The notes beneath the pieces were generated by a model. The model searched no databases. It saw only the letters and a list, made by a program, of their open reading frames with translations, and had not been told where the DNA came from. Position numbers and translations under genes: made by a program. 64,000 bases of DNA from Mycobacteroides saopaulense (GTDB lineage: Bacteria > Actinomycetota > Actinomycetes > Mycobacteriales > Mycobacteriaceae), in assembly GCF_001456355.1 (NCBI RefSeq), contig NZ_CP010271.1, positions 2,046,001 to 2,110,000 of the forward strand. Reading direction: 5' to 3'. Shown in pieces: positions 4,684 to 33,885 of this stretch; within the stretch, counting starts at the first letter, position 1; the number at the start of each line of letters is the position of its first letter.

Positions 4684-6918
4684 ATGACGGGCGTGACGAC
4701 ATTGCTGAGCGATTCGGATTATGCGCGTGCCGAACAGATGCTTTTCCCTTCTCGGGCCCGGCGGGTGCCGGGCACTGTGCTGACTCCGCAGTGGGTCGCT
4801 GACGGTGCCCGATTCTGGTACCGGATCGGAACCCGCTATGTTGCGGTTGATCCCGGCGTGAAGACTCGTCGTGCCGCCTTCGACCACGATGAGCTGGCCG
4901 CCGCACTGTCGTTGGCGGCGGGGCAGGCGGTGACCGGTGCCGATCTGCCGATACAGGCTGTGGAAATTCGGGCCGACGACACGGTGCTGTTCAGCGCGTT
5001 CGGCCGGAATTGGCAATGGGCGGACAGCGCCTGCACCGAATCTGACACGGCCGCAACTATTCCGGGTGCGATCCCGTCTCCCGATGAGCGGTGGGATGCG
5101 TTCCGCCGCGATGGCGATATCTGGATCCGCAGCCGGGCCGATGGTTCCGAACATGCACTCACCGATGACGCTGAACCCTATTTCGATTACGGTGGCCTGC
5201 CGGATACCACCGGTGCTCGTGCACTGACCCGTGCCCTGGGCATTCCGACGCCGATGATGCTGCACTGGTCGCCCGATTCCACCCGAATCCTGGTCGCGCG
5301 CATCGATCAGCGTGAGGTGCCCGAGTTGGTGCTCGTGGAATCGAGCCCGGCCGAGGGCGGCCGGCCGGTGGAACACCGCACTCGCTACTCGATGCCCGGC
5401 GAGGACACCGTGGCAACGATGACCTGGAACGTGCTGGATGTCGAGCAACGCACGGCAGTACGGCAGCAGAGCGAGCCGGCACCGATCATGCACAATGTCG
5501 CGCTCGTCTATGCCTGGTGGAGCGGTGACGACGTGTACTTCCTGCATCAGTCACGCGATGCACGCACCCTGCAATTGCGTCGCCTGGATCCGTCAACTGG
5601 TGCGGTCACCACGCTGATCACCGACACGTGCCAGACCCGGGTCGACGCCACCGTGGTGCTCGGCGACCCGCACATGGTGCACGTGCTGGACACCGGCGAG
5701 ATCCTGTGGTGGTCACAGCGCGATGGTTGGGGCCACCTATACCTCTATTCGGCCGACGGCGCCGAAGTCACCCAGATAACCACCGGGCCATGGCTGGTGA
5801 GCAACGTGTTATGGGTTGACCAGAGTGCTCGACAGGTGTACTTCACGGCCAACGGTCTGGTCGAGGCCGACCCATACCTGCGGCAGCTCTGTCGAATCGG
5901 ACTGGACGGCAATGGGTTTACCCGACTCACAGACGACGAGCTGGACCATGATGCGGTCAGCCCGCCACAGGGCGGCTACCTGGTGGACCGCGCCTCAAGC
6001 CCTAGCCTGCCACCACGCTCAGTGGTACTCGACAGGGATGGTCAGGTGGTGGTGGAGTTGGAGGCACCCGATACCGAAGACCTCGAGATTTTGGGCTGGC
6101 AACCGCCGGAGCGGTTTCGGACGACCGCCGCGGACGGAAAGACCCCCATCTACGGTCTGCTCTGGCGACCGCACGATCTGGACCCGGACCGCACGTACCC
6201 GATCATCGAACACATCTATCCGGGGCCGCAGCTCTACCGCGCCGGACCGATGTTCAACCCGCCGCACTACGGCGAACCGGAGGCCTTCGCCGCGCTCGGG
6301 TTCGCGGTGGTTGCCATCGACGGTCGTGGAAGCGCGGGGCGCAGCAAGGCATTTCATGACCACTCCTATGGAGATCTCGGCAACGCTGGAGCCCTGGACG
6401 ACCACATCGCCGCAATCCGCGAACTCGGACAGCGGTATCCGTGGCTGGACACTGCCCGGGTCGGGATTACCGGACAGTCCGCTGGTGCGTTCGCCGCGGC
6501 GCGTGCCGTGCTGCGATACCCGGACTTCTATTCGGTGGCCGTCGCGGTCTCGGGCAATCATGACAACGCCCTCAACCTGGCGATGTGGGCCGAGCACTAC
6601 CACGGCGATCTGAGCGCCGAAGGCCAAGCAGCGATCTCGAACACCACGCTGGCCGCCAACCTGAAGGGCAAGCTGCTGCTCATCCACGGTGAACTCGACG
6701 ACAACGCGCACCCGTACATGACGATGCGGCTGGCCGACGCACTCATCAAGGCGGACAAGGACTTCGACCTGATCATGATTCCCGGCGCCGAGCACTCGCT
6801 GTACGGTTGGCTGCACTACTCACTGCGCCGAACCTGGGACTACTTCGTGCGACATCTACACGGCACCGAGCCACCCGGCTACCGACTACAGCCGCTGCTG
6901 CTCCCCTCGCTCGGCTGA
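4684..6918 (+). CDS. prolyl oligopeptidase family peptidase (S9B, DPP IV-like)
   Basis: A serine peptidase of 744 residues: an N-terminal DPP IV beta-propeller region (roughly 60-480) followed by an alpha/beta-hydrolase domain. The predicted triad is Ser599 in GQSAG, Asp672 in HGELDD and His704 in GAEHSLYG. The S9 family cleaves short peptides, often after proline or alanine. No signal peptide is seen from this start, so it is probably cytoplasmic. ATG 4684 is preferred because the in-frame sequence upstream (open from 4471) is unlike the family and overlaps the divergent secreted gene; no strong ribosome-binding site is visible. GQSAGAF replaces the usual GxSYGG nucleophile context. Confidence 0.87.
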   Translation: MTGVTTLLSDSDYARAEQMLFPSRARRVPGTVLTPQWVADGARFWYRIGTRYVAVDPGVKTRRAAFDHDELAAALSLAAGQAVTGADLPIQAVEIRADDTVLFSAFGRNWQWADSACTESDTAATIPGAIPSPDERWDAFRRDGDIWIRSRADGSEHALTDDAEPYFDYGGLPDTTGARALTRALGIPTPMMLHWSPDSTRILVARIDQREVPELVLVESSPAEGGRPVEHRTRYSMPGEDTVATMTWNVLDVEQRTAVRQQSEPAPIMHNVALVYAWWSGDDVYFLHQSRDARTLQLRRLDPSTGAVTTLITDTCQTRVDATVVLGDPHMVHVLDTGEILWWSQRDGWGHLYLYSADGAEVTQITTGPWLVSNVLWVDQSARQVYFTANGLVEADPYLRQLCRIGLDGNGFTRLTDDELDHDAVSPPQGGYLVDRASSPSLPPRSVVLDRDGQVVVELEAPDTEDLEILGWQPPERFRTTAADGKTPIYGLLWRPHDLDPDRTYPIIEHIYPGPQLYRAGPMFNPPHYGEPEAFAALGFAVVAIDGRGSAGRSKAFHDHSYGDLGNAGALDDHIAAIRELGQRYPWLDTARVGITGQSAGAFAAARAVLRYPDFYSVAVAVSGNHDNALNLAMWAEHYHGDLSAEGQAAISNTTLAANLKGKLLLIHGELDDNAHPYMTMRLADALIKADKDFDLIMIPGAEHSLYGWLHYSLRRTWDYFVRHLHGTEPPGYRLQPLLLPSLG

Positions 6919-17197: not shown

Positions 17198-17893
17198 CTA
17201 CTGGTCCAGCCAGCTGACGATGCCGGTGTCGAGTGCGTAATACGCGCCGGCGATACGCAGCTCGTTGTTCTTGGCGTTCGATGCCAGCGGCGGATCGGCG
17301 CGTAAAGCGTTGACCGTCAATCGGATCTGGGCGCGAATAGTTCCCTCGATCAGATCGTCGAGGGATTTCCACTGTGCTTGTTTGGCCTCCAAGTAGGCGG
17401 GTTTGAGCGCTTCGACGACGTCGGCAAGGTGAGCGGGTGCAGGAGCTCTTTGCTCAAGGGATTTCACGGCCGCAGTTGCGGCACCGCAGCGCTGGTGGCC
17501 CAGTACCACCATCAGCGGGGTGTGGTCCATGATAGCGCCGTATTCGATGCTGCCCTCGATGAGGGCATCGTAATCCTGTGCCCCGGTGCGTATTACGAAT
17601 AGGTCGCCGAGGCCTTGGTCGAAGATGATTTCCGGTGGGACTCGAGAGTCGATGCAGCTGAACACGATTGCCGCGGGATCCTGGCCGTCGGCTAGTTCTT
17701 GCCGCCGTCGCGCAGATTGATGTGGATGGGTCATCTGTCCGCTGGCGAAGCGGGCATTGCCGGCCTTCAGCGCCGCAAGTGGGTCTGCGTGTTCGGGCAT
17801 CGCCGAGGTGGTGGTAGGTGTTGGAATGCCGCGCTCACACGCGGCGACGGCTACGAGTGTGAGCCCGCCGAGAAGCAGCGTCCGCCGGTTCAT
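17198..17893 (-). CDS. exported beta-class carbonic anhydrase, lipoprotein
   Basis: A 231-residue protein with signal peptide MNRRTLLLGGLTLVAVAAC whose Cys19 fits a lipobox, so it is probably anchored on the outer face of the membrane. The beta-CA zinc site is complete: Cys in FSCIDSRVPPE with the Asp-Arg dyad, and His/Cys in VVLGHQRCGAA. It interconverts CO2 and bicarbonate. ATG 17893 gives the exact signal peptide; the frame is open further but unlike the family. It lies 14 bases downstream of DUF5313 in the same orientation, back to back with the ArsR-PEPCK-SulP operon. Confidence 0.93.
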   Translation of the reverse strand: MNRRTLLLGGLTLVAVAACERGIPTPTTTSAMPEHADPLAALKAGNARFASGQMTHPHQSARRRQELADGQDPAAIVFSCIDSRVPPEIIFDQGLGDLFVIRTGAQDYDALIEGSIEYGAIMDHTPLMVVLGHQRCGAATAAVKSLEQRAPAPAHLADVVEALKPAYLEAKQAQWKSLDDLIEGTIRAQIRLTVNALRADPPLASNAKNNELRIAGAYYALDTGIVSWLDQ

Positions 17894-17906
17894 GGGAACT
17901 GCGTGT

Positions 17907-18323
17907 CTAGATGGGGTCGCTGCTGGAGTAGTTGTCGGCTGTTTGTGTCCGCGCGCCATAGCGCTGGGCGTACGCCTCGTGCTTGCGTGCGTTCTTTTCC
18001 CTGTTGACGTTGTCGGCGAGCTTGGGGTCAAGGCCGTGGGTTGCGAGCCGGTGGCGGCGCCAGATCTTGTTGAGGGCATGGGTCATCAGGATGGCCCACA
18101 CATAGATGGGCAGTGTGATCGCTGTGTGTAATAGCAACCCGCCGGGCAGCAGCCAAAAGGGGGCCAGGATGAAGTGCGGCGGGATCACGTAACGGACCAT
18201 GTGTCGTCGGATAGCGCCTGGGCCAGAGAGATCGTTGGCGACCCAGTCACGCATGCTGTCGGGCAGACGCTTGCCGTAGCAATAGGTGACGTATTGCCAT
18301 CCGGTGGGTCGATCGGTGGCCAT
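17907..18323 (-). CDS. DUF5313 family membrane protein
   Basis: The 138-residue protein matches DUF5313: an N-terminal RPTGWQYVTYCYGKRLPDSMRDWV, then two membrane helices (FILAPFWLLPGGLLLH, LPIYVWAILMTHALNKI). A basic tail full of Arg/Lys follows. The family is mycobacterial and of unknown function. ATG 18323 has AGGAG eight bases upstream, better than the TTG at 18329. It is first in a two-gene unit with the carbonic anhydrase, so it may help transport or place its substrate; that is inference. Confidence 0.82.
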   Translation of the reverse strand: MATDRPTGWQYVTYCYGKRLPDSMRDWVANDLSGPGAIRRHMVRYVIPPHFILAPFWLLPGGLLLHTAITLPIYVWAILMTHALNKIWRRHRLATHGLDPKLADNVNREKNARKHEAYAQRYGARTQTADNYSSSDPI

Positions 18324-18407
18324 AGACAAGACTCCTGGGCGTTGTTGATTGTCCGCATTGTCGGTGCGCCCGCTGGGGCCCGGTTCCTCCGGGACGTCGG
18401 GGTGTGG

Positions 18408-18471
18408 TGGTTCCCACCGGGGCCTGTGTAGCAGACAGCCCTGCTGAATAGGGTAACCGCGGTGGGAACCA
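18408..18471. promoter_or_regulatory. inverted repeat between the divergent DUF5313 and arsR genes
   Basis: TGGTTCCCACCG (18408-18419) has a perfect reverse complement at 18460-18471, 40 bases apart. The left arm is itself part of GGTGG-TTC-CCACC. Paired sites between divergent genes suggest a looping or two-site operator for the ArsR protein. Confidence 0.5.
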
Positions 18472-18553
18472 AACCGAACTATAGACCACCGTTGTCCTGC
18501 AGCATTGCCGGGTTGCTAATCTTTGCATGTTGTCGTATTGGTGAGGTGGAGTT

Positions 18554-18925
18554 GTGGTGGATGCGCGTCAGCCGCTGTATCGGATGAAGGCGGACTTCTT
18601 CAAAACCCTGGGGCACCCGGTGCGGATCCGGGTGTTGGAGTTGCTTAGCGAGCGGGATCGGGCGGTCTCGGAGATGCTGCCGGAAGTCGGGATCGAAGCG
18701 GCAAACCTATCCCAGCAGTTGGCGGTGTTGCGCCGTGCTGGCTTGGTGACCGCACGGCGCGAAGGTTTGTCGGTGCTGTACACGTTGACCTCGCCGCAGG
18801 TGGCCGAGCTGCTGGCGACCGCACGCACAATCTTGACCGGGGTCGTCGCCGATCAGGCCGAATGGCTCGACGGCGCTGATCCGGTCCCTGTGGGGCCCGC
18901 GGAGGCGACGCGGGCCCGGCGCTAG
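18554..18925 (+). CDS. ArsR/SmtB-family regulator, cysteine-free
   Basis: The 123-residue winged-helix protein has FKTLGHPVRIRVLELLSERD, an HTH of the type EAANLSQQLAVLRRAGLV, and the wing RREGLSVLYTL. It contains no cysteine, so the usual thiol metal sites of ArsR, CmtR or CadC cannot exist. The signal may be another ligand or a His/Asp metal site. A GTG at 18554 (or 18557) follows GAGGTGGAG. It heads the PEPCK-SulP genes, though a hairpin overlaps its stop codon. It probably regulates these and the divergent carbonic anhydrase unit. Confidence 0.88.
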   Translation: MVDARQPLYRMKADFFKTLGHPVRIRVLELLSERDRAVSEMLPEVGIEAANLSQQLAVLRRAGLVTARREGLSVLYTLTSPQVAELLATARTILTGVVADQAEWLDGADPVPVGPAEATRARR

Positions 18926-18959
18926 CCGGAGGTATCGGACGCTGCCTCCGGCTAGCGCC
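18918..18959 (+). terminator. hairpin at the end of arsR
   Basis: GGCGCTAGCCGGAGG (18918-18932) pairs perfectly with 18945-18959 around a 12-base loop. It includes the arsR stop codon. There is no U-run. It may be a partial terminator that sets the ratio of arsR to PEPCK message. Confidence 0.6.
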
Positions 18960-19030
18960 CACTAGTTGCTTGTTTTCTTAATTAGCGTGATGTGTTGATA
19001 GTCGAGTTGCGAAGGACATAAGGAGTGGTT

Positions 19031-20902
19031 GTGTCGGATGCGGTTGGCATAGCAGGTACGGCGCCAGTGATGCAGGGTTTGGCGCCGGCGCCCACGACTC
19101 ATGCCGGGGTGTTGTTGTGGGTGGCCGAGATGGCCGAGCTATTGGGGCCGGACAAGGTGGTGTGGTGTGACGGGTCTGATGCTGAATGGAACCGCCTGAC
19201 GGCACTGCTGATCAAGAAGGGCACCTTCGTTCCGCTGACCGGTAAGCCGAACTCTTTCTGGGCCGTCTCAGATCCGGCGGATGTGGCACGTGTGGAGGAC
19301 CGCACGTTCATCTGTTCGGATGATTCCGCCGATGCGGGGCCGACCAACAACTGGATGGACCCGGTCGACATGACCACCATCATGACCGAGGAATACCGCG
19401 GCGCGATGGCCGGGCGCACCATGTACGTGATCGCCTTCTGTATGGGCCCGTTGGGCTCTGATGAACCGAAATTCGGTGTTCAGGTAACGGATTCAGAGTA
19501 CGTGGCGGTCTCGATGCAGATCATGACCCGTTCCGGCACCGCGGTGTGGGATCGACTGGGGCTGCGCGGCCGATTCGTCAAATGTGTGCACTCGGTCGGT
19601 GCCCCACTTGCGCCCGGGCAGGCCGATGTGCCCTGGCCGTGCGACGAAACCAAGTACATTTCACATTTCCCGGCCACCCGCACCATCTGGAGTTACGGCT
19701 CCGGGTACGGCGGCAACGCGTTGTTGGGTAAGAAATGTTTCGCCCTGCGGATCGCCTCGGTGATGGCCCGCGACGAAGGCTGGCTGGCCGAGCACATGCT
19801 GATTCTCAAACTGACCTCCCCCGAAGGGGTCGTGAGATATGTAGCCGCAGCGTTCCCGTCCTCGTGCGGCAAGACAAACATGGCGATGCTACAACCCGCA
19901 TTGCCGGGGTGGACGGCCGAGACGATCGGCGATGACATCGCATGGATGCGCTTCGGGGCAGATGGACGTCTATATGCGGTCAACCCCGAAGCCGGATTCT
20001 TCGGAGTGGCACCCGGCACTGGCGGCCGCACCAACCCGAACGCGATGGACACCATCGAGCTTGGCAACTCCATTTTCACCAACACCGCATTTACCAATGA
20101 CGGCGATGTCTGGTGGGAGGGTATGACTGAGGCGCCGCCAGAACATCTGACTGACTGGCGCGGCCAGCATTGGACACCTACCTCCACCGAGCCTGCCGCG
20201 CATCCGAATTCACGGTATTGCACACCCATTGCGCAATGCCCGACGGTCGCCCCGGAATGGGACGATCCCGCCGGAGTACCGATCTCGGCAATCTTCTTCG
20301 GCGGCAGACGCGCCAGCACAGTCCCGCTGATCACCGAATCCCTCAACTGGCGCCATGGAGTGTTCCTGGCCTCCACGCTGTCCTCGGAAACCACCGCGGC
20401 CGCCGCCGGCCAAGTCGGGGTGTTGCGCCGCGACCCCATGGCAATGCGCCCCTTCCTTGGATATCACGTCGGCGACTACTTCCAGCACTGGCTCAACATC
20501 GGCACCCGCACCGACCCGGATCTGCTGCCGAAGATCTTCTACGTCAACTGGTTCCGCCGCAGTGGCGACGGCAGGTTCCTGTGGCCCGGTTTCGGGGAGA
20601 ACGCCCGGGTCCTCAAATGGGCACTGGAACGCCTCGACGCCACCGCCGACGCCGTAGCCACTCCCATCGGCTACCTACCCTCCCTCGATGCCCTCGATCG
20701 CACCGGTCTCGACATCAGTGACCAGGACCTCGAAGCAGCGCTAGCGATCAACATCGACGAATGGGTCACCGAAACCGAATCCATCGACGAGTGGTACGCC
20801 CACATCGGCGGCAACCGCTTGCCCGACGAGCTACGGCTAGAACTCGGCGCCCTCCGGGCACGATTGGCGGAAGCTCGGCGGGGATGCGCCGAATTGCGAT
20901 GA
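19031..20902 (+). CDS. pckG: GTP-dependent phosphoenolpyruvate carboxykinase
   Basis: The 623-residue protein is slightly longer than usual (about 605-610). Family motifs are all present: P-loop [12 protein letters not shown] with the reactive Cys, kinase-2-like [21 protein letters not shown], and the guanine site [19 protein letters not shown]. It interconverts oxaloacetate + GTP and PEP + CO2 + GDP in the cytoplasm. The GTG at 19031 lies five bases after AAGGAG; the GTG at 19025 is too close. Sitting between an ArsR regulator, a SulP transporter and a carbonic anhydrase, it may work in the carboxylating direction. It could be a second copy beside a housekeeping pckG outside the window. Confidence 0.95.
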
Positions 20903-20963
20903 CAACAAAGGTAATCAGCCTGCGTGCGGCACGTAGTGGCCTCCGTGGATGTGGGCCCAGGTG

Positions 20964-22616
20964 ATGCGTCTCGCCAGCGGTGTCGCAGCACGGCTGCTGC
21001 CGCAACACGACGACTATGCAGGACTGAGCCGCTCGTGGCGCCGCGATATCCTTGCCGGCACAACCGTGGGGGTGGTCGCACTTCCCCTGGCCTTAGCGTT
21101 CGGCATCAGCTCGGGAGCCGGTGCCGCGGCCGGCCTGATCACTGCCGTCATTGCCGGTGTGGTGGCTGCTGTGTTCGGCGGGTCCCACGTGCAGGTCTCC
21201 GGGCCGACTGGAGCCATGGCAGTGGTGCTGGCGCCCATCGTCTTCCAGTACGGTGCAGGCAGTCTGGCTTTGGTCACCGTGCTGGCTGGAGTCATCGTGC
21301 TTACAGCCGGGATAACAGGTCTCGGACGGGCCGTCACCTTTATCCCCTGGCCGGTCATCGAAGGCTTCACTCTCGGAATCGCCACCATTATCTTCATGCA
21401 GCAAGTCCCCGCTGCTGTCGGACAGCCCGTACCCCAGGGCCAACGCCCACTGCTGGCAGCCATCGAAGTCCTCACCCACGCACGGTGGAACACAGCGTGG
21501 CCGCCGCTGCTGGTGGTGGTGTTGGTTGCCGCGTTGATGATCGGCCTGCCGCGAGTACACCGCGCGATCCCCGAATCCTTGGCCGCGGTAGTTGTTGCCA
21601 CGGTGCTCGTGGCAACAACCGGGCTTGCGGTGGCACGAATCGGGCAGTTGCCGTCGAGGCTACCTGCACCACTCCTTCCGCACGCCGACCTGGCTGCGCT
21701 GCAGGCGCTTTTGGGGGCTGCCGTAGCGATAGCGGCCTTGGCTGCAATCGAATCATTGCTTTCGGCCCGGGTTGCAGCCACTATGTCGCCGACCGGACCC
21801 TACGACCCCGACCGCGAGCTCGTCGGCCAGGGGCTGGCGTCGGTTGCATCCGGTCTGTTCGGTGGTATGCCCGCCACCGGTGCTATCGCCCGAACCGCCG
21901 TCAACATTCGTTCAGGTGCACGTACCCGATTGGCCGCCATCACTCACTCGGTCCTGTTGCTCGCGGTGGTGTATCTGGCCAGCGGGCCCGTGGCCGGAAT
22001 ACCCTTAGCCGCATTGTCTGCGGTACTGATGATCACCTCGCTACGCATGTTCCCCCTGCGCACTGCGGTTACGATCCTGCGCTCGACTCGCTCGGATGCC
22101 CTCACCTTCGTCCTCACCGCACTCGTTACGATCTGCTTCGACCTCATCGAGGCCGTCGAGATCGGCATCGTGGTTGCCGCCTTCTTCGCCCTGCGTGTCG
22201 TTGCCCGCCGCAGCAGCGTCACCCGAGAGGAACTACCCGGCCCACCTCAACCGGGTGATGAGAAAATCGCACTACTGCGGCTCGATGGCGCGATGTTCTT
22301 CGGTGCAGCCGAACGCATCTCGAACTCAATCACCGACACTGAGCACCCCGACACCAGTGTTGTGATCATCCGCATGTCCCAACTCGGCATGCTCGACGCC
22401 ACTGGCGCACACACCTTGGCGCAGATCGCCGAAGAACTCGAATCCCGCGGTATCACCGTCATCATCAAAGGTGTTCAGCCAGAACACCTCAAACTCCTCA
22501 CCAACGTCGGCGTCATTGAGTCCCTACGGCACGAGAACCACCTCATCGGTTCCCTCGAGGAAGCCATCGCTCACGCCCGGCGTCATGCTACTGGTACTCA
22601 CTCGAAAGGCGATTGA
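20964..22616 (+). CDS. SulP/SLC26 anion transporter with STAS domain, BicA-like
   Basis: The 550-residue protein has a membrane domain of about 10-12 helices (LAGTTVGVVALPLALAFGI, GGSHVQVSGPTGAMAVVL, then VASGLFGGMPATGAIARTAVN). A cytoplasmic STAS domain follows from about 440 (LRLDGAMFFGAAERI, MLDATGAHTL). The start of the membrane domain resembles the BicA/DauA branch, which carries bicarbonate or dicarboxylates, more than sulfate carriers. It starts about 60 bases after pckG, so they are likely co-transcribed; ATG 20949 is an alternative start. Supplying bicarbonate to PEPCK is the simplest role, by inference. Confidence 0.88.
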   Translation: MRLASGVAARLLPQHDDYAGLSRSWRRDILAGTTVGVVALPLALAFGISSGAGAAAGLITAVIAGVVAAVFGGSHVQVSGPTGAMAVVLAPIVFQYGAGSLALVTVLAGVIVLTAGITGLGRAVTFIPWPVIEGFTLGIATIIFMQQVPAAVGQPVPQGQRPLLAAIEVLTHARWNTAWPPLLVVVLVAALMIGLPRVHRAIPESLAAVVVATVLVATTGLAVARIGQLPSRLPAPLLPHADLAALQALLGAAVAIAALAAIESLLSARVAATMSPTGPYDPDRELVGQGLASVASGLFGGMPATGAIARTAVNIRSGARTRLAAITHSVLLLAVVYLASGPVAGIPLAALSAVLMITSLRMFPLRTAVTILRSTRSDALTFVLTALVTICFDLIEAVEIGIVVAAFFALRVVARRSSVTREELPGPPQPGDEKIALLRLDGAMFFGAAERISNSITDTEHPDTSVVIIRMSQLGMLDATGAHTLAQIAEELESRGITVIIKGVQPEHLKLLTNVGVIESLRHENHLIGSLEEAIAHARRHATGTHSKGD

Positions 22617-24444: not shown

Positions 24445-24479
24445 GGGACCAACGGCGTCCCGGCAGGGACTGCGGACCC
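24445..24479. promoter_or_regulatory. two candidate DosR boxes between divergent USP genes
   Basis: GGGACCAACGGCGT (24445-24458) and GGGACTGCGGACCC (24466-24479) match 9 and 10 of the 14 core positions of the published Mtb DosR consensus (GGGACTWWAGTCCC). They lie 21 bp apart, two helical turns, 62-96 bases before the USP start at 24541. Confidence 0.55.
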
Positions 24480-25641: not shown

Positions 25642-26357
25642 GCGGTGAACTGACCCGCCATTCGGGTGAGCCACATAGGCAGGATACGGGGAGCCGATTG
25701 AACTGGCTCCGTGCGGGTGTCCTCGGCGCCAACGACGGAATCGTGTCGACCGCCGGCATGGTGGTGGGCGTGGCTGCGGCAACTGCGGAGCGCGGTTCCA
25801 TCTTTACCGCCGGAGTCGCGGGCATTGCGGCCGGAGCGATATCCATGGCGCTGGGTGAGTATGTTTCGGTCAGCACTCAGCGCGATACCGAGCGGGCGCT
25901 GCTGGAGAAGGAACGCACGGAGCTCCGAGACTCCCCCGAGCCTGAACTGGCAGAGCTAGCCTCCATTTATGAGTCGAAGGGTCTATCACCGAGCACGGCT
26001 CGACAGGTCGCCACGGAACTGACCGCGCACGACGCCTTTGCCGCACACGCCGAGGCCGAGCTCCATATCGATCCGCACGGGTTGACGAATCCATGGCATG
26101 CTGCGGTGTCCTCGGCAATCTCCTTCCTGACCGGAGCCATGCTGCCGATGATTGCCATCCTGCTGCCGCCCGCGGCTTGGCGAATCCCGGTGACAGCGCT
26201 GGGCGTATGTATCGCCCTGGTGCTGACAGGATGGATCAGCGCCGCCCTTGGCGAGGCCGGCCGTATCCGGGCCATTTCACGGGTCACCTTTGGCGGATTG
26301 ACGGCCATGGGGGTGACTTATCTGATCGGTACGCTCGTTGGGCACGCTATGTCTTGA
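25638..26357 (+). CDS. VIT1/CCC1-family iron/manganese transporter
   Basis: The 239-residue protein shows the VIT signature: RLNWLRAGVLGANDGIVSTAGMVVGVAAA, an amphipathic MALGEYVSVSTQRDTE helix with acidic metal ligands, and three C-terminal helices (SSAISFLTGAMLPMI, IPVTALGVCIALVLTGW, GLTAMGVTYLIGTLVG). It moves Fe2+ or Mn2+ across the membrane, probably outward or into storage. ATG 25638 lacks a ribosome-binding site but overlaps the preceding stop (ATGA). It overlaps the convergent SulP gene by 11 bases. Confidence 0.88.
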   Translation: MSGELTRHSGEPHRQDTGSRLNWLRAGVLGANDGIVSTAGMVVGVAAATAERGSIFTAGVAGIAAGAISMALGEYVSVSTQRDTERALLEKERTELRDSPEPELAELASIYESKGLSPSTARQVATELTAHDAFAAHAEAELHIDPHGLTNPWHAAVSSAISFLTGAMLPMIAILLPPAAWRIPVTALGVCIALVLTGWISAALGEAGRIRAISRVTFGGLTAMGVTYLIGTLVGHAMS

Positions 26358-28041
26358 GATCCTCAGGGCGGGCATGGAACGCATCGACTGCCGTCGGGAG
26401 CGTCACGAAAATTCTGCTCTCGCCGATCCGCGACAGCAGATCTGCTGCGGCCAAAGCATCGCGCAGATCTTGTTTGACCCGTGCCATAGCGAAAACTATT
26501 CCCCTGTCGGATAAGTCGCTTCTCAGCCGCTCCAGCGCATCCAATGCGGTGAGGTCCACGTCTACGTTGGCCTCTGCGCTGAGTATGAACCATTCGACGG
26601 GCTCCGGGGCCGTGGTTACTGCATTCATCGCGCGACGGCGGAAATCCTCGGCATTGGCGAAACACAGTGGTGCGTCATACCGGTAGACGACCAGCCCTGG
26701 CACCGGGCTTGCGTTCGGATAGTCGTCGACATCGTGCATGCCCGGTACTCCGGGGACGTAGCCGAGTACTCCGTCATGCGGATGCGCGACCCTGCGGAGC
26801 AAGTCGAGTATCGACAAGGCGACTGCGGCCAAAATCCCATACAGCACACCAAGCCCGAGGACAGCCAGCGTTGTCGCGAGCGCCAGAACGAACTCGCTGC
26901 GGCGGAATCGGGCGAAGCGGCGGTACTCGGACACGTCGATGAGCCTGAGTGCGGCATACACCACCAGTGCGCCCAGGGCAGCTCGCGGGACCAGAGCCAA
27001 AACCCCATGTGCAAAAAGCAGCACCGTCAGCACAAGGACGAATGCGATCAGGGAGAACAGTTGACTGCGGCTTCCCGTCGAATCACCGAGTGCGGTGCGG
27101 CTACCGCTGGAACTGACCGGAAAGCCTTGCATCAAACCAGATCCCATGTTGCACAGACCTAGCGCGCGTAGCTCGGTGTTGGGATCGATGTCTTCGTTCC
27201 GGCGGGTCGCGAATGCGCGCGCAGTCAGTATGTTGTCGGAGAACGCGACCATGGCTACACCCATCGCGGGTATGACCAGCGTCCCTAGTTGGCTTACGTC
27301 GATGTGGGGCACATCGGGAATCGGGAGGCCCGCCGGAACCCGGCCCACGAGGTCAAAACCGGGTGAGGGCAGGGCCGATGCGGCCGCGGCGGCAACGGCA
27401 ACCGCGATAAGTGGACCGGGCATGCGAGAGGCCCAGCGGGTAAGAGCCGCCAATAGCGTGAGTACGGATGCGGCCAGTATGAGCGTCGGCCACCGAATGT
27501 GCTCGAACTGTCCTGCCAACGATCTCACCTGGGCGATGAAATCGTCGCCGGAGTTCCGAGTGCCGGTTATCGTACCGATCTGACTGCCCGCCATGGTGAT
27601 TCCAACACCACCCATGTAGCCGACGAGCACCGGATGCGAGAGCAGATTGGCGAGCACTCCGAGCTTGATGAGGCCTGCCGCAAGACACACAACCCCCACT
27701 AACAGCGCCAATGCGGCTGCCAAAACCGCATAGCGCCCCGAGTCTCCAGATGCCAACGGCACCAGGACAATCGCCGTCATTAGGGCGGTAGTGGACTCGG
27801 GTCCGACGGACAGTTGTCTTGACGATCCCAGGAAAGCGTAGATGACCAACGGTGCCAAGGAGGCCCACAGGCCGCTGACCGGCGGCAGGCCCGCGAGTGC
27901 GGCATAGGCCATGACCTGCGGAACGAGATATGCCGCGACGGTGATGCCGGCGAGAACATCTCCGCGCAGCCAGGTGCGTCGGTAATCTGACAACAGCCCT
28001 AGACCAGGTGCGAAATTCTTCCATCGCATGAGGACCGTCAT
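26347..28041 (-). CDS. SulP/SLC26 anion transporter with STAS domain, Rv1739c-like
   Basis: The 564-residue protein has a membrane domain (DVLAGITVAAYLVPQVMAYA, SVGPESTTALMTA, and GFPVSSSGSRTALGDS between helices) and a STAS domain from about 440 (YRYDAPLCFANAEDFR, DLTALDALERL). It follows the sulfate-permease branch represented by Mtb Rv1739c. It starts 17 bases after the dosS stop in the same direction and is the last gene of the usp-xfp-dosR-dosS run. The substrate may be sulfate, bicarbonate or a dicarboxylate. Confidence 0.9.
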   Translation of the reverse strand: MTVLMRWKNFAPGLGLLSDYRRTWLRGDVLAGITVAAYLVPQVMAYAALAGLPPVSGLWASLAPLVIYAFLGSSRQLSVGPESTTALMTAIVLVPLASGDSGRYAVLAAALALLVGVVCLAAGLIKLGVLANLLSHPVLVGYMGGVGITMAGSQIGTITGTRNSGDDFIAQVRSLAGQFEHIRWPTLILAASVLTLLAALTRWASRMPGPLIAVAVAAAAASALPSPGFDLVGRVPAGLPIPDVPHIDVSQLGTLVIPAMGVAMVAFSDNILTARAFATRRNEDIDPNTELRALGLCNMGSGLMQGFPVSSSGSRTALGDSTGSRSQLFSLIAFVLVLTVLLFAHGVLALVPRAALGALVVYAALRLIDVSEYRRFARFRRSEFVLALATTLAVLGLGVLYGILAAVALSILDLLRRVAHPHDGVLGYVPGVPGMHDVDDYPNASPVPGLVVYRYDAPLCFANAEDFRRRAMNAVTTAPEPVEWFILSAEANVDVDLTALDALERLRSDLSDRGIVFAMARVKQDLRDALAAADLLSRIGESRIFVTLPTAVDAFHARPEDLKT

Positions 28042-30489: not shown

Positions 30490-30493
<4 letters not shown>

Positions 30494-32901
30494 GATGGGG
30501 CTCCCTCCCACCGCCAATGTCGGACCTCGGGAAGGTCTTCTCCATAGGTGCGGATCCAGTCATGGTGGCGGGCGTGCATTGCGTGCATGTCTTCCCGCAG
30601 CTGTCGGGCGCACGCGTCATCAAGTAATCCGGGCGTCCGCTCGAGTACGTCGATCACCAGCTGGAAGCGGTCCATCTTGTTCAAGACCAACATGTCGAAC
30701 GGTGTTGTGGTGGTGCCCTCTTCCAAGTAACCCCGGACATGCATGTTTGCGTGACCGGCACGGCGATAGGTGAGCTTGTGGATCAGCGATGGGTATCCAT
30801 GGAACGCGAAGATCACCGGGCTTTCCTTGGTGAACAGGGTGTTGTACTCGGTGTCAGTCATACCGTGCGGATGCTGACTGTCTGATTGCAAACGAAACAG
30901 GTCGACAACATTGACCACGCGAATCTTCAATTGCAGCAGCCGCTTTCGCAGTACTGATACCGCTGCCAGCACCTCGATGGTGGGAACATCTCCGGCGCAG
31001 GCCAATACGACATCGGGTACTGAGCCGGCATCGCTACTGGCCCATTCGAAGATATCGGCACCGCGGGCGCAGTGCAGCGCGGCTTGCTCGGGATTGAGCC
31101 AGACCGGCGTGTAGTTCTTCCCGGCGACGATGACATTGATGTAGTCGCGGCTGGCTAGGCAATGCGCCGCAACCGACAGCAGTGTGTTGGCGTCGGGCGG
31201 CAGGTAGATTCGCGCCACTTCGGCTCGTTTATTTGCGACATGATCGATGAAGCCGGGATCCTGGTGCGAGAAGCCGTTGTGGTCCTGGCGCCAGACATGC
31301 GAGGTGAGTAGATAGTTGAGTGAGGCGATCGGGCGGCGCCACGGGAGTTGCCTACTGACCTTGAGCCACTTGGCATGCTGGTTGACCATGGAGTCCACGA
31401 TGTGCGTGAAAGCTTCGTAGCACGAGAATAGGCCGTGCCGTCCGGTGAGCAGGTAGCCCTCCAGCCAGCCCTGGCACAGGTGTTCCGAGAGCACCTCCAG
31501 TACCCGACCGTCGCGACCCAGATGATTGTCGGTGGGCAGAATCGTTGCGCTCCATTGCTTGTCCGTCACATCGAAGACATCCCCAAGCTTGTTCGATTCG
31601 GTTTCATCCGGGCCGAACAGCCGGAAGTTTCGTTGCTCCGCGTTATGGACCATCAGCTCTCTCAGATACCGGCCCAGAATCCTGGTCGGGGAGGCGGGCA
31701 CTCCCCCGGGCTGGCCCGTCACCACACCAAAAGTGCCGGGATCCGGCAAGACAAGCGGTCTTAGTGTGGCACCGCCGTTGGTATGCGGATTGGACCCCAT
31801 TCGCCGATGACCTGATGGAACCAGTTGCTTGACGGTGCTATTCGGTGCTCCGCAATGATCGAAGAGCTCTTCTGGACGATAGGACCGCATCCATTCATCA
31901 AGCAGAACACGATGTCCGGCATTCTCGCGGACATCGCCGACGGGCACCTGGTGGGACCGCCACGTGCCTTCGACCTGAACTCCGTCTACGGCGGCCGGGC
32001 CCGTCCAACCCTTGGGGGTGCGTAACACGATCATCGGCCATATCGCGCGATGCAATGGCGCTCCTTGGCATCGGGATAGCAACTGGAGATCACGGATCTC
32101 CATGATCGCCCGATCCAGCGCCGCTGCCATCTGTTGATGCATGTCCGCTGGTTCGTGGCCGCTCACGTAGATCGGGCTATATCCGTATCCGCGGAGCAGA
32201 TCCTCAAGCTCTTCTTCGGTAATCCGAGACAGCACAGTGGGGTTGGCGATCTTGTAACCGTTGAGATGAAGGATCGGCAGCACCACTCCATCAGTCGCCG
32301 GGTTGAGGAACTTGTTGGCGTGCCAGCTTGCGGCCAACGGCCCGGTCTCGGCTTCACCGTCGCCGACTACACAGACCGCGACCAAGTCTGGATTGTCAAG
32401 CACGGCACCGTAGGCGTGCGCCAAGCTGTATCCCAGCTCGCCTCCCTCGTGTATCGACCCGGGGACGTCTGGGGCTACGTGGCTGGGCACTCCTCCAGGA
32501 AAAGAAAACTCGCGAAACAACATTCGCATGCCATCGACATTCTGCGGGATGTCGGGGCGGACGTCACTGTAGCTGCCCTCCAGCCAGGTGTTCGCGAACA
32601 TCGCGGGCCCTCCGTGCCCCGGACCAACGACGAACAGTGCGTTGATGTCGTGCGTAATGATGGCTCGGTTCATGTGGGCATAGACGAAGTTCAGGCCGGG
32701 CGAGGTGCCCCAGTGTCCCAACAACCGTGGTTTGATGTGCTCGCTCTGAAGGGGTTCCGTCAGCAACGGGTTGTCCAGCAGATAGATCTGCCCCACCGTG
32801 AGATAGTTCGCTGCGCGCCATTGAGCATCAAGGGCGTGCAGTTGATCGTCCGACAACGGGTGTCGATGATGTTGGGCCGCACTAGGCATCGCAGTGGTCA
32901 T
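30490..32901 (-). CDS. xfp: xylulose-5-phosphate/fructose-6-phosphate phosphoketolase
   Basis: The 803-residue protein has the usual family length. N-terminal [18 protein letters not shown], the [18 protein letters not shown] loop, and the thiamine-diphosphate motif [14 protein letters not shown]...[10 protein letters not shown] are all clear. It cleaves xylulose-5-P (or fructose-6-P) with phosphate to acetyl-P plus an aldose phosphate, without reducing NAD. Acetate kinase could then yield ATP. The start and stop overlap the USP gene (ATGA) and dosR (GTGA), so it is locked into the dosRS operon. This fits fermentative energy supply in hypoxia. Confidence 0.95.
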
Positions 32902-33803
32902 CGCTTGGTATCCGATGCGTGCGGGCGGGCAATCAAAACCGGACACGTCGCTTGGTGAATCAGCGCGTGGCTCGTCGATCCGAGAAAGAAGCCGGCTACG
33001 TCGCCGCGTCCACGACTTCCCACGACGATCAGCTGAGCATGCTGGGCGCGGCGCAGCAGCACGTCGGCGGGGTTGCCCATGGCCACAACACGATGGACGG
33101 TGACGTCCGGGTACTTCTCCTGCCACCCGGCTAGTCGTTCGGCGAGGATCTCGGACTGCTGTTGCTCGCTAGCTGCCCAATCCATGGTGCTCCATGCGGT
33201 GTATGCGTAGACATAGCCGGGTGGGACATCGTTCCACACGTGCACCGCTACCAACTCCGCGCCGCGCATGGACGCCTCTTCGAAGCCCCAGGCAATGGCA
33301 TCTTCGCTGGACGGAGACCCGCTGACGCCCACGATGACAGGGCCGTCCGCAGGAGTGCCCGATTCACGAATGACGACCACCGGGCTGTGTCCCTTCGCGG
33401 TCAGCGTTACTGATACCGACCCAGCCATCATCCCGGTGAAACGTCCCAAGCCGGTTGATCCGACTACCGTAAGCAGCGCGTTCCGGGAGAGGTCGATGAG
33501 TGTCGGAATCGGTTGCGCCTTTACCAGGGTGGTAGCGACTTCGAGTCTGGGATGCAGCGCGACCACGTGGTCCTTGGCTTGATCGAGGAATGTGGCACCG
33601 TCGGAATCCAGATGCACGTAGAAACTCTCGGCCGCCGCGGGATTGAAACCGTAACCGAAACTGCTGTAGTCGATGGCATGGACGAGCTTCAGCGGAAGGT
33701 TGCGCCGCTCTGCTTCTGCGCTTGCCCAGGTGAGGGCGTGTAGTGCAGATGCGGATCCGTCGATTCCTACCAGGATGTACGGACGCGGGGTGGTTGCGCT
33801 CAT
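32898..33803 (-). CDS. tandem universal stress protein, first gene of the dosRS operon
   Basis: The 301-residue protein has two USP domains. The loops are [17 protein letters not shown] and [17 protein letters not shown], both with G-2x-G-9x-G[ST]. The second start motif is [11 protein letters not shown], with Asp replaced by Ser. ATG 33803 has GGAGGCC upstream; the frame is open to 33842. The stop overlaps the phosphoketolase ATG. A DosR-like box lies about 70 bases upstream. It is probably an ATP-binding stress sensor made with the dormancy regulators. Confidence 0.92.
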
Positions 33804-33867: not shown

Positions 33868-33885
33868 CACGGCCAAAAGTCCCAT
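33868..33885 (-). promoter_or_regulatory. candidate DosR box for the usp-xfp-dosRS operon
   Basis: On the minus strand the sequence reads ATGGGACTTTTGGCCGTG. GGGACTTTTGGCCG matches 11 of 14 core positions of the DosR consensus. It lies about 65-80 bases upstream of the USP start at 33803. Confidence 0.6.

What the first reader, a model, noticed from the sequence alone, without database searches (positions are those of the whole stretch)
17198..22616. Candidate CO2-fixing cassette: exported carbonic anhydrase and DUF5313 opposite ArsR-PEPCK-SulP
All parts for capturing CO2/bicarbonate and making oxaloacetate are together: surface carbonic anhydrase, a BicA-like SulP carrier and a GTP PEPCK, around one shared operator with a cysteine-free ArsR. 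Mtb PEPCK has been reported to act in the anaplerotic direction under reducing or hypoxic conditions. The cluster lies 10 kb from dosRS. The regulator, with no thiol site, may sense a metabolite. I know of no description of this combined unit.
Basis: partly seen in the sequence, partly recalled or inferred. Interest (0 to 1): 0.78.

Follow-up and report, generated by a model that had tools for sequence, protein, structure and literature searches.

The report
Rv0081-type operon with second PEP carboxykinase
A mycobacterial genome carries a patchily spread gene set in which a repressor related to a tuberculosis low-oxygen regulator sits before a second copy of the enzyme that can join CO2 to phosphoenolpyruvate and before an anion carrier, which may be a spare route for handling CO2 and four-carbon acids when oxygen is short.

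Summary
The genes are real: a beta-carbonic anhydrase and DUF5313 (minus strand) face ArsR, GTP-PEPCK and SulP (plus strand). This PEPCK is one of two in the genome; ArsR-linked PEPCKs form one clade apart from unlinked ones (39 and 29 rows, support 100). The ArsR is Rv0081-type. PEPCK follows ArsR in 35 of 80 related loci, with SulP behind in 27, and on two Rhodococcus plasmids. Mycobacteroides SulPs belong to another lineage than those of Nocardia and Rhodococcus, yet the pairing is kept. In six loci PEPCK lies near an Rv0082-87-like membrane complex. Carbonic anhydrase is an optional neighbour (8 of 88 loci). SulP is not sulfate-type, but three of four BicA sodium positions differ, so bicarbonate or C4-dicarboxylate stay open. 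CO2 fixation is plausible, not shown.

The parts
17198..17893 (-). beta-carbonic anhydrase, probable exported lipoprotein
   Evidence: Pro_CA 109.6 bits; closest solved chain 2a5v 131.9 bits; CIDSR and GHQRC motifs seen (motifs recalled)
17907..18323 (-). DUF5313, small protein with a hydrophobic middle
   Evidence: PF17240 167.1 bits; hydropathy
18402..18481 (-). nested inverted repeat/hairpin with paired changes between relatives; RNA leader of DUF5313-CA or DNA-level site, strand undecided
   Evidence: 5 of 19 pairs changed on both sides in 10 sequences; the 12 strong model hits in 9 of 396 genomes all lie between DUF5313 and ArsR; GU cells 6 versus 6; RNAalifold draws another inner stem
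18492..18520 (+). possible promoter TTGTCC-17-GCTAAT of arsR; the -10 lies inside the operator
   Evidence: by eye; conserved in the Mycobacteroides alignment; not found by the consensus scan
18513..18528 (+). predicted ArsR operator TTGCTAATCTTTGCAT
18554..18925 (+). Rv0081-type ArsR repressor, cysteine-free
   Evidence: 6jmi (Rv0081) 122.9 bits, next 51.2
19031..20902 (+). second GTP-PEPCK (PckG2 clade)
   Evidence: PRK04210 957.9 bits over cut-off; clade
20949..22616 (+). SulP/SLC26 anion carrier with STAS domain
   Evidence: PF00916 230.7 and PF01740 61.9 bits; ligand positions

Best explanation
The unit is a local, self-repressed accessory operon. The Rv0081-type ArsR dimer binds TGC-TAAnnTTn-GCA, which covers its own -10 box, and so keeps arsR-pckG2-sulP off (inferred from the operator). 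An unknown, non-thiol signal of low oxygen or over-reduction lifts it (inferred). PckG2 then gives extra capacity at the PEP-oxaloacetate-CO2 node, most likely running PEP + CO2 + GDP to oxaloacetate + GTP, which feeds the reductive C4 branch; SulP moves a matching anion (bicarbonate in, or C4-dicarboxylate). The exported carbonic anhydrase and DUF5313, on the other strand and so from another transcript, are a local add-on that would supply or recycle CO2/bicarbonate at the cell surface. Shown: gene content, conservation, two PEPCK clades, regulator family, operator motif. Inferred: binding, signal, direction, substrate.
For: Recurrence: 35 of 80 loci ArsR then PEPCK, 27 with SulP behind; a further 17 ArsR then SulP. 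Extra copy: exactly 2 pckG in 32 of 38 genomes searched; of the 6 genomes picked for an ArsR locus without PEPCK, 4 have 1. Clade split. SulP of another lineage in Mycobacteroides with the order kept. Rv0081 kinship, and six loci where PEPCK lies near an Rv0082-87-like complex. Carbonic anhydrase beside the locus in three groups of genera. PEPCK keeps the Cys391/Cys397 equivalents in 39 of 39, the pair reported to influence the anaplerotic direction in the Mtb enzyme (PMC5279734, passages). In Rhodococcus and Mycolicibacterium cassettes a protein of malic-enzyme fold sits before PEPCK, pointing to C4 acids.
Against: No expression data. No DosR box at the cassette and no Rv0082-87-like complex in this genome (one weaker match, 46% over 110 residues, probably NuoB). 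A thiolase-like cluster appears in 7 of 80 loci drawn, and plasmids from oil-contaminated water and river sediment carry the cassette, which fits a gluconeogenic use as well. Unlinked PEPCKs keep the same cysteines (29 of 29), so these do not mark direction. One genome with a linked PEPCK shows a single copy (G105, a MAG) and one shows seven matches, fragments included (G104). Carbonic anhydrase was found in 8 of 88 loci only.
Confidence: 0.5

Rival explanations
1. C4-dicarboxylate module: SulP carries succinate, fumarate or malate, and PckG2 links them to PEP, either for use as food or for succinate export; carbonic anhydrase is incidental.
For: Best NCBIfam model for the SulP is DauA (329.6 bits; BicA 235.4; both under cut-off). 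Glu stands at the BicA Asp258 position and Ile at the Thr302 position in 48 of 49 aligned rows each; in the alignment chain 5da0 (SLC26Dg, name recalled) also has Glu and Ile there. DauA is a C4-dicarboxylate carrier (PMC5703999, abstract start in the listing). A malic-enzyme-fold partner occurs in related cassettes.
Against: Bicarbonate-contact positions Thr69 and Ala301 are kept in the window protein. Carbonic anhydrase lies beside the locus in three groups of genera. The transmembrane part is slightly closer to 6ki1 (BicA, name recalled; 164.9 bits) than to 5da0 (153.8).
Confidence: 0.3
2. Gluconeogenic reserve: PckG2 raises OAA to PEP flux during growth on lipids, sterols or hydrocarbons.
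For: A thiolase-like cluster (named thiolase in the record) appears in 7 of 80 loci drawn; the cassette lies on plasmids of strains from oil-contaminated water and river sediment.
Against: The other 73 of 80 loci drawn lack that cluster among the nearest genes; it does not explain SulP, carbonic anhydrase or the Rv0081-type regulator.
Confidence: 0.2
3. Sulfur unit: the ArsR senses sulfite or sulfide and SulP moves sulfate.
For: ArsR also matches BigR (58.7 bits, cut-off 155); the SulP family name.
Against: ArsR has no cysteine; SulP is below the sulfate permease cut-off while the neighbour SulP at 26347-28041 passes it.
Confidence: 0.03

Closest known systems
Rv0081 and the Rv0081-Rv0088 locus of M. 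tuberculosis
   Same: same ArsR subfamily; own-promoter inverted repeat (reported for Rv0081, PMC6177252 passages); in relatives the same kind of regulator precedes genes like Rv0082-87 (gene names recalled)
   Different: PEPCK and SulP follow here; half-site TGC/GCA where genus orthologues of Rv0081 have TGA/TCA; no complex genes found in this genome; no DosR box
M. tuberculosis PEPCK (4wie, 4r43)
   Same: nearly whole length, 921 bits, P-loop and the two regulatory cysteines kept
   Different: separate clade, P-loop SSCGKT in 36 of 39, eight diagnostic positions, operon context
BicA bicarbonate carrier
   Same: same SulP family; Thr69, Gly300 and Ala301 positions kept
   Different: Asp258 to Glu, Thr262 to Ser, Thr302 to Ile; far below the BicA cut-off
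DauA / SLC26Dg
   Same: DauA is the best family model; Glu and Ile positions shared with 5da0
   Different: below the DauA cut-off; different partners
mycobacterial ArsR-SulP gene pair
   Same: SulP 68-81% identical; an Rv0081-like ArsR next to it in 29 of the 34 genomes that have a match in both
   Different: no PEPCK between

Membership tests
Rv0081-type ArsR | closest sequence kin among solved structures is Rv0081 | tested here: met
   6jmi 122.9 bits, next 51.2
Rv0081-type ArsR | no thiol metal site | tested here: met
   no cysteine
Rv0081-type ArsR | inverted repeat in its own promoter | tested here: met
   motif only; binding not tested
Rv0081-type ArsR | precedes a group-4-like membrane complex | tested here: not met
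   not found in this genome; present in relatives
Rv0081-type ArsR | induced by DosR | tested here: inconclusive
   no box at the cassette with a recalled consensus
GTP-PEPCK | family model over cut-off, active-site P-loop | tested here: met
   957.9 bits, cut-off 504; FPSSCGKTN
beta-carbonic anhydrase | Pro_CA over cut-off; Cys-Asp-Arg and His-Cys motifs (recalled) | tested here: met
BicA | Na+ ligands Asp258, Thr262, Gly300, Thr302 | tested here: not met
   Glu, Ser, Gly, Ile
BicA | NCBIfam BicA cut-off 880 | tested here: not met
   235.4
DauA | NCBIfam cut-off 614 | tested here: not met
   329.6
sulfate permease TIGR00815 | cut-off 380.45 | tested here: not met
   264.4
CO2-fixing cassette | net carboxylation by PEPCK in vivo | not testable with these tools
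   needs tracing

The most novel reading that the evidence does not exclude
Rv0081-type repressors are a family of local switches, each keeping one of several exchangeable low-oxygen carbon and energy modules off: a membrane complex without hydrogenase cysteines, SulP alone, or PEPCK with SulP and sometimes carbonic anhydrase or a malic-enzyme-like partner. The window holds the CO2-handling version, and the hypoxia hub of M. tuberculosis is a member that later gained a wider role. A base change in the operator (C to A) goes with Ala to Ser/Thr in the recognition helix.
Probability: 0.35. Interest if true: 0.7.

Novelty: new variant of a known kind. Interest (0 to 1): 0.5.

Why it matters
What Rv0081 senses is not given in the passages that I read (PMC6177252: no defined metal site), yet it is called a regulatory hub of the initial hypoxic response (PMC4757040, passages). 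A relative with one clear target operon, whose genes have known chemistry (PEP, oxaloacetate, CO2, an anion carrier), narrows the candidates to a few metabolites and makes the question testable in harmless hosts. It also gives a case in which the anaplerotic use of PEPCK may have its own dedicated gene.

Tried and rejected
Its strong model hits are confined to the DUF5313-ArsR gap of 9 of 396 genus genomes (12 places), whereas the TTGC/GCAA motif is found across genera. RNA reading of that repeat: not settled. For it: 5 of 19 pairs changed on both sides, 92.2% of cells paired. Against: 6 cells favour each strand; RNAalifold keeps the outer stem but draws a different inner one, with a small covariation term (-1.12); the count of further pair types is no higher than in shuffles (500 of 500 reach it); Rfam has no match. 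Weak model hits in seven other genomes (L189-L195) have no DUF5313 or ArsR beside them and are taken as chance.

DosR control of the cassette: no box between DUF5313 and ArsR; the pattern as a whole is below chance in the window (20 found, 34.6 expected). Wider regulon of ArsR: 61 loose matches in the genome against 110 for the reversed control, so no enrichment.

Recognition-helix/operator rule: strong by group (Ala with TGC 67, with TGA 0; Ser or Thr with TGA 29, with TGC 3, one of which, L016, is a far-off match that looks spurious; no operator called in 29; 128 in all), but on the tree there are few changes (5 for the residue, 3 for the operator) and one independent pair on supported branches, so it is weak as independent proof.

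Limits of counts. In one search two of the six carbonic anhydrase queries (L103, L106) were read in a wrong frame, so four good queries did the work and carbonic anhydrases may be undercounted; L140 repeats the contig of L021. PEPCK hits under 500 residues (L028 split in two frames, L048, L062) and duplicates L156 and L140 were left out of the PEPCK tree; its 29 unlinked rows are the 30 best-scoring matches returned as loci, less one duplicate. G032 and G101 look like one assembly. The 49 SulP rows include the neighbour SulP, four SulP-CA fusions, L042_13 and a second copy of the window's own. L015 among the 19 loci with complex-like genes is probably ordinary NADH dehydrogenase.
Full report
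Observation. The window is G000:C1:2046001-2110000 of a 4.65 Mb single-contig genome; the nearest named relatives of the ArsR are Mycobacterium sp. D16Q13, D16Q14 and D16R12 and Mycobacteroides franklinii, so a Mycobacteroides-type species is inferred. All five genes are present and over their Pfam cut-offs. The genome has two pckG, four SulP over the cut-off and five carbonic anhydrase domains.

Conservation. tblastn with the window's proteins and a count give: PEPCK within 2.5 kb downstream on the same strand 35 of 80 (27 with SulP behind, 8 without), SulP without PEPCK 17, neither 28; PEPCK on any strand within 6.5 kb 38; DUF5313 21. Two Rhodococcus plasmid stretches carry ArsR, a hypothetical protein, PEPCK and DUF5313, one with SulP and the other with carbonic anhydrase; two Streptomyces plasmid stretches have ArsR and SulP but no annotated PEPCK. 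The cassette is patchy in the genus: of 98 genomes searched, only G000, G087, G091 and G032 have an ArsR match of 75% identity or more over at least 100 residues (shorter pieces occur in G000 and G088), and G087 has no second pckG.

PEPCK. Of 38 genomes searched, 32 have exactly two pckG, five have one and one has seven matches, fragments included. A tree of 39 ArsR-linked and 29 unlinked PEPCKs splits them on one branch, SH-aLRT 100. The window protein matches the Mtb enzyme over nearly its whole length (921 bits). Eight positions separate the clades; the P-loop is SSCGKT in 36 of 39 linked and SACGKT in 29 of 29 unlinked; the Cys391/Cys397 equivalents are kept in all 68. Passages of PMC5279734 report that Mtb PEPCK makes oxaloacetate only under reducing conditions and that these cysteines influence stability and preference.

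Regulator and operator. The ArsR is closest to Rv0081 among solved structures. The pattern TTGCTAANNTTNGCAA was read off the upstream regions and occurs within two mismatches in 76 of 85 of them, against 0 of 1700 Markov shuffles; because the pattern came from the same set, the shuffles test strength, not discovery. In the window it ends 25 nt before arsR, and the 15-base core has one perfect copy in the genome. Rv0081-like genes of the genus (about 60% identical) do not carry it (3-5 mismatches in L110-L135) but in most cases a TGATAAATTCTTCA-like site of the same 14-base geometry, with A for C at the third base pair. [quoted passage not shown] the original paper was not held, so its exact site was not compared.

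SulP. Positions of the BicA ligands (PMC13249358, one passage) were read from the alignment and counted over 49 rows: Thr69 48 Thr; Asp258 48 Glu; Thr262 46 Ser; Gly300 43 Gly; Ala301 43 Ala; Thr302 48 Ile. By model and structure scores the cassette SulP is nearer BicA, SLC26Dg and DauA than the sulfate carriers, but it is not a BicA by its sodium site. The neighbour SulP at 26347-28041 passes the sulfate permease cut-off and matches the STAS structure 2kln. In the genus 146 of 396 genomes have a SulP at E 1e-100 or better. Reading by eye the 34 genomes that have a match in both, an Rv0081-like ArsR lies within 0.4 kb before SulP in 29, PEPCK stands between in 2 (G000, G091), and 3 have no such neighbour among the matches listed (G021, G035, G086). 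The tree of 65 SulPs puts the Mycobacteroides cassette SulPs inside that mycobacterial group and apart from the Nocardia and Rhodococcus cassette SulPs, so two SulP lineages are paired with the same PEPCK clade. In L213 (G420) an ArsR 84% like the window's stands directly before SulP without PEPCK.

Wider modules. 19 of 80 loci hold genes of a complex like Rv0082-87 (Oxidored_q6, Proton_antipo_M, NADHdh), and all 26 loci L110-L135 around the Rv0081-like ArsRs hold such genes. Six of the 19 also hold PEPCK: L016, L021, L029, L043 and L054 with the complex directly upstream on the same strand, L058 with it on the other strand beyond two thiolase-like genes. In L016 the order is ArsR, complex genes, second ArsR, PEPCK; in L043 the same with the extra protein before PEPCK. 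Nine of ten large-subunit-like proteins have no CxxC, and the tenth only in an added N-terminus (one of the nine, L015, is probably NuoD), so a working hydrogenase is unlikely. The extra protein before PEPCK has no Pfam match in the two Rhodococcus plasmid copies scanned, but the model of a relative (pLDDT 82.7) matches malic enzymes (best E 1e-12, TM 0.68, 17% identity).

Carbonic anhydrase. Among 88 loci examined, 8 hold one: stand-alone in L004, L026, L028, L030 (the last three one genome), SulP fusions in L054, L056, L067, and the lipoprotein type in L136. It is optional; three kinds in three groups of genera suggest that it joined more than once.

Hairpin. Five of 19 pairs show changes on both sides; the strand is undecided and the inner stem is not the one RNAalifold draws.

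Print. Searches for PEPCK with SulP and carbonic anhydrase (86 papers, 12 listed), PEPCK with ArsR and SulP (8 listed), DUF5313 (1) and Rv0081 with ArsR (17, 15 listed) showed no title or abstract start about this unit; papers not listed were not seen, and subscription papers are mostly not held.

Verdict. A real conserved operon with a known kind of regulator and known enzymes in a combination that I did not find described. The CO2-fixing reading is plausible and testable; the C4-acid reading is nearly as good.

Noticed in passing
18402-18481 (-): Nested inverted repeat with paired changes between DUF5313 and ArsR, strong hits only in Mycobacteroides-like genomes; may be a new RNA leader or a paired DNA site.
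   Followed up: partly
L139 (G000:C1:2438000-2450000), about 5387-5800: Remnant of a second DUF5313-ArsR locus in this genome, with the middle missing; intact copies exist in relatives (L137, L138).
   Followed up: partly
26347-28041 (-): A second SulP 4 kb from the cassette, sulfate-permease type.
   Followed up: yes
30490-33126 (-): Phosphoketolase (XFP) directly beside the dosR-like gene.
   Followed up: no
24466-24479 and 33870-33883: DosR-box-like sites (recalled consensus, 0 and 1 mismatch) between divergent Usp genes and between Usp and a nitroreductase-like gene.
   Followed up: partly
L016 519-7905, L043 454-7447: Rv0082-87-like complex in tandem with the ArsR-PEPCK cassette; the large-subunit-like proteins checked lack CxxC.
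   Followed up: partly
L003 6486-7343, L004 6477-7358: Protein without a Pfam match between ArsR and PEPCK; the model of a relative has a malic-enzyme fold.
   Followed up: yes
L005 1225-4504: Streptomyces plasmid with ArsR, SulP, a pyridoxamine-phosphate-oxidase-like protein, an ATP-binding protein and a STAS protein in a row.
   Followed up: no
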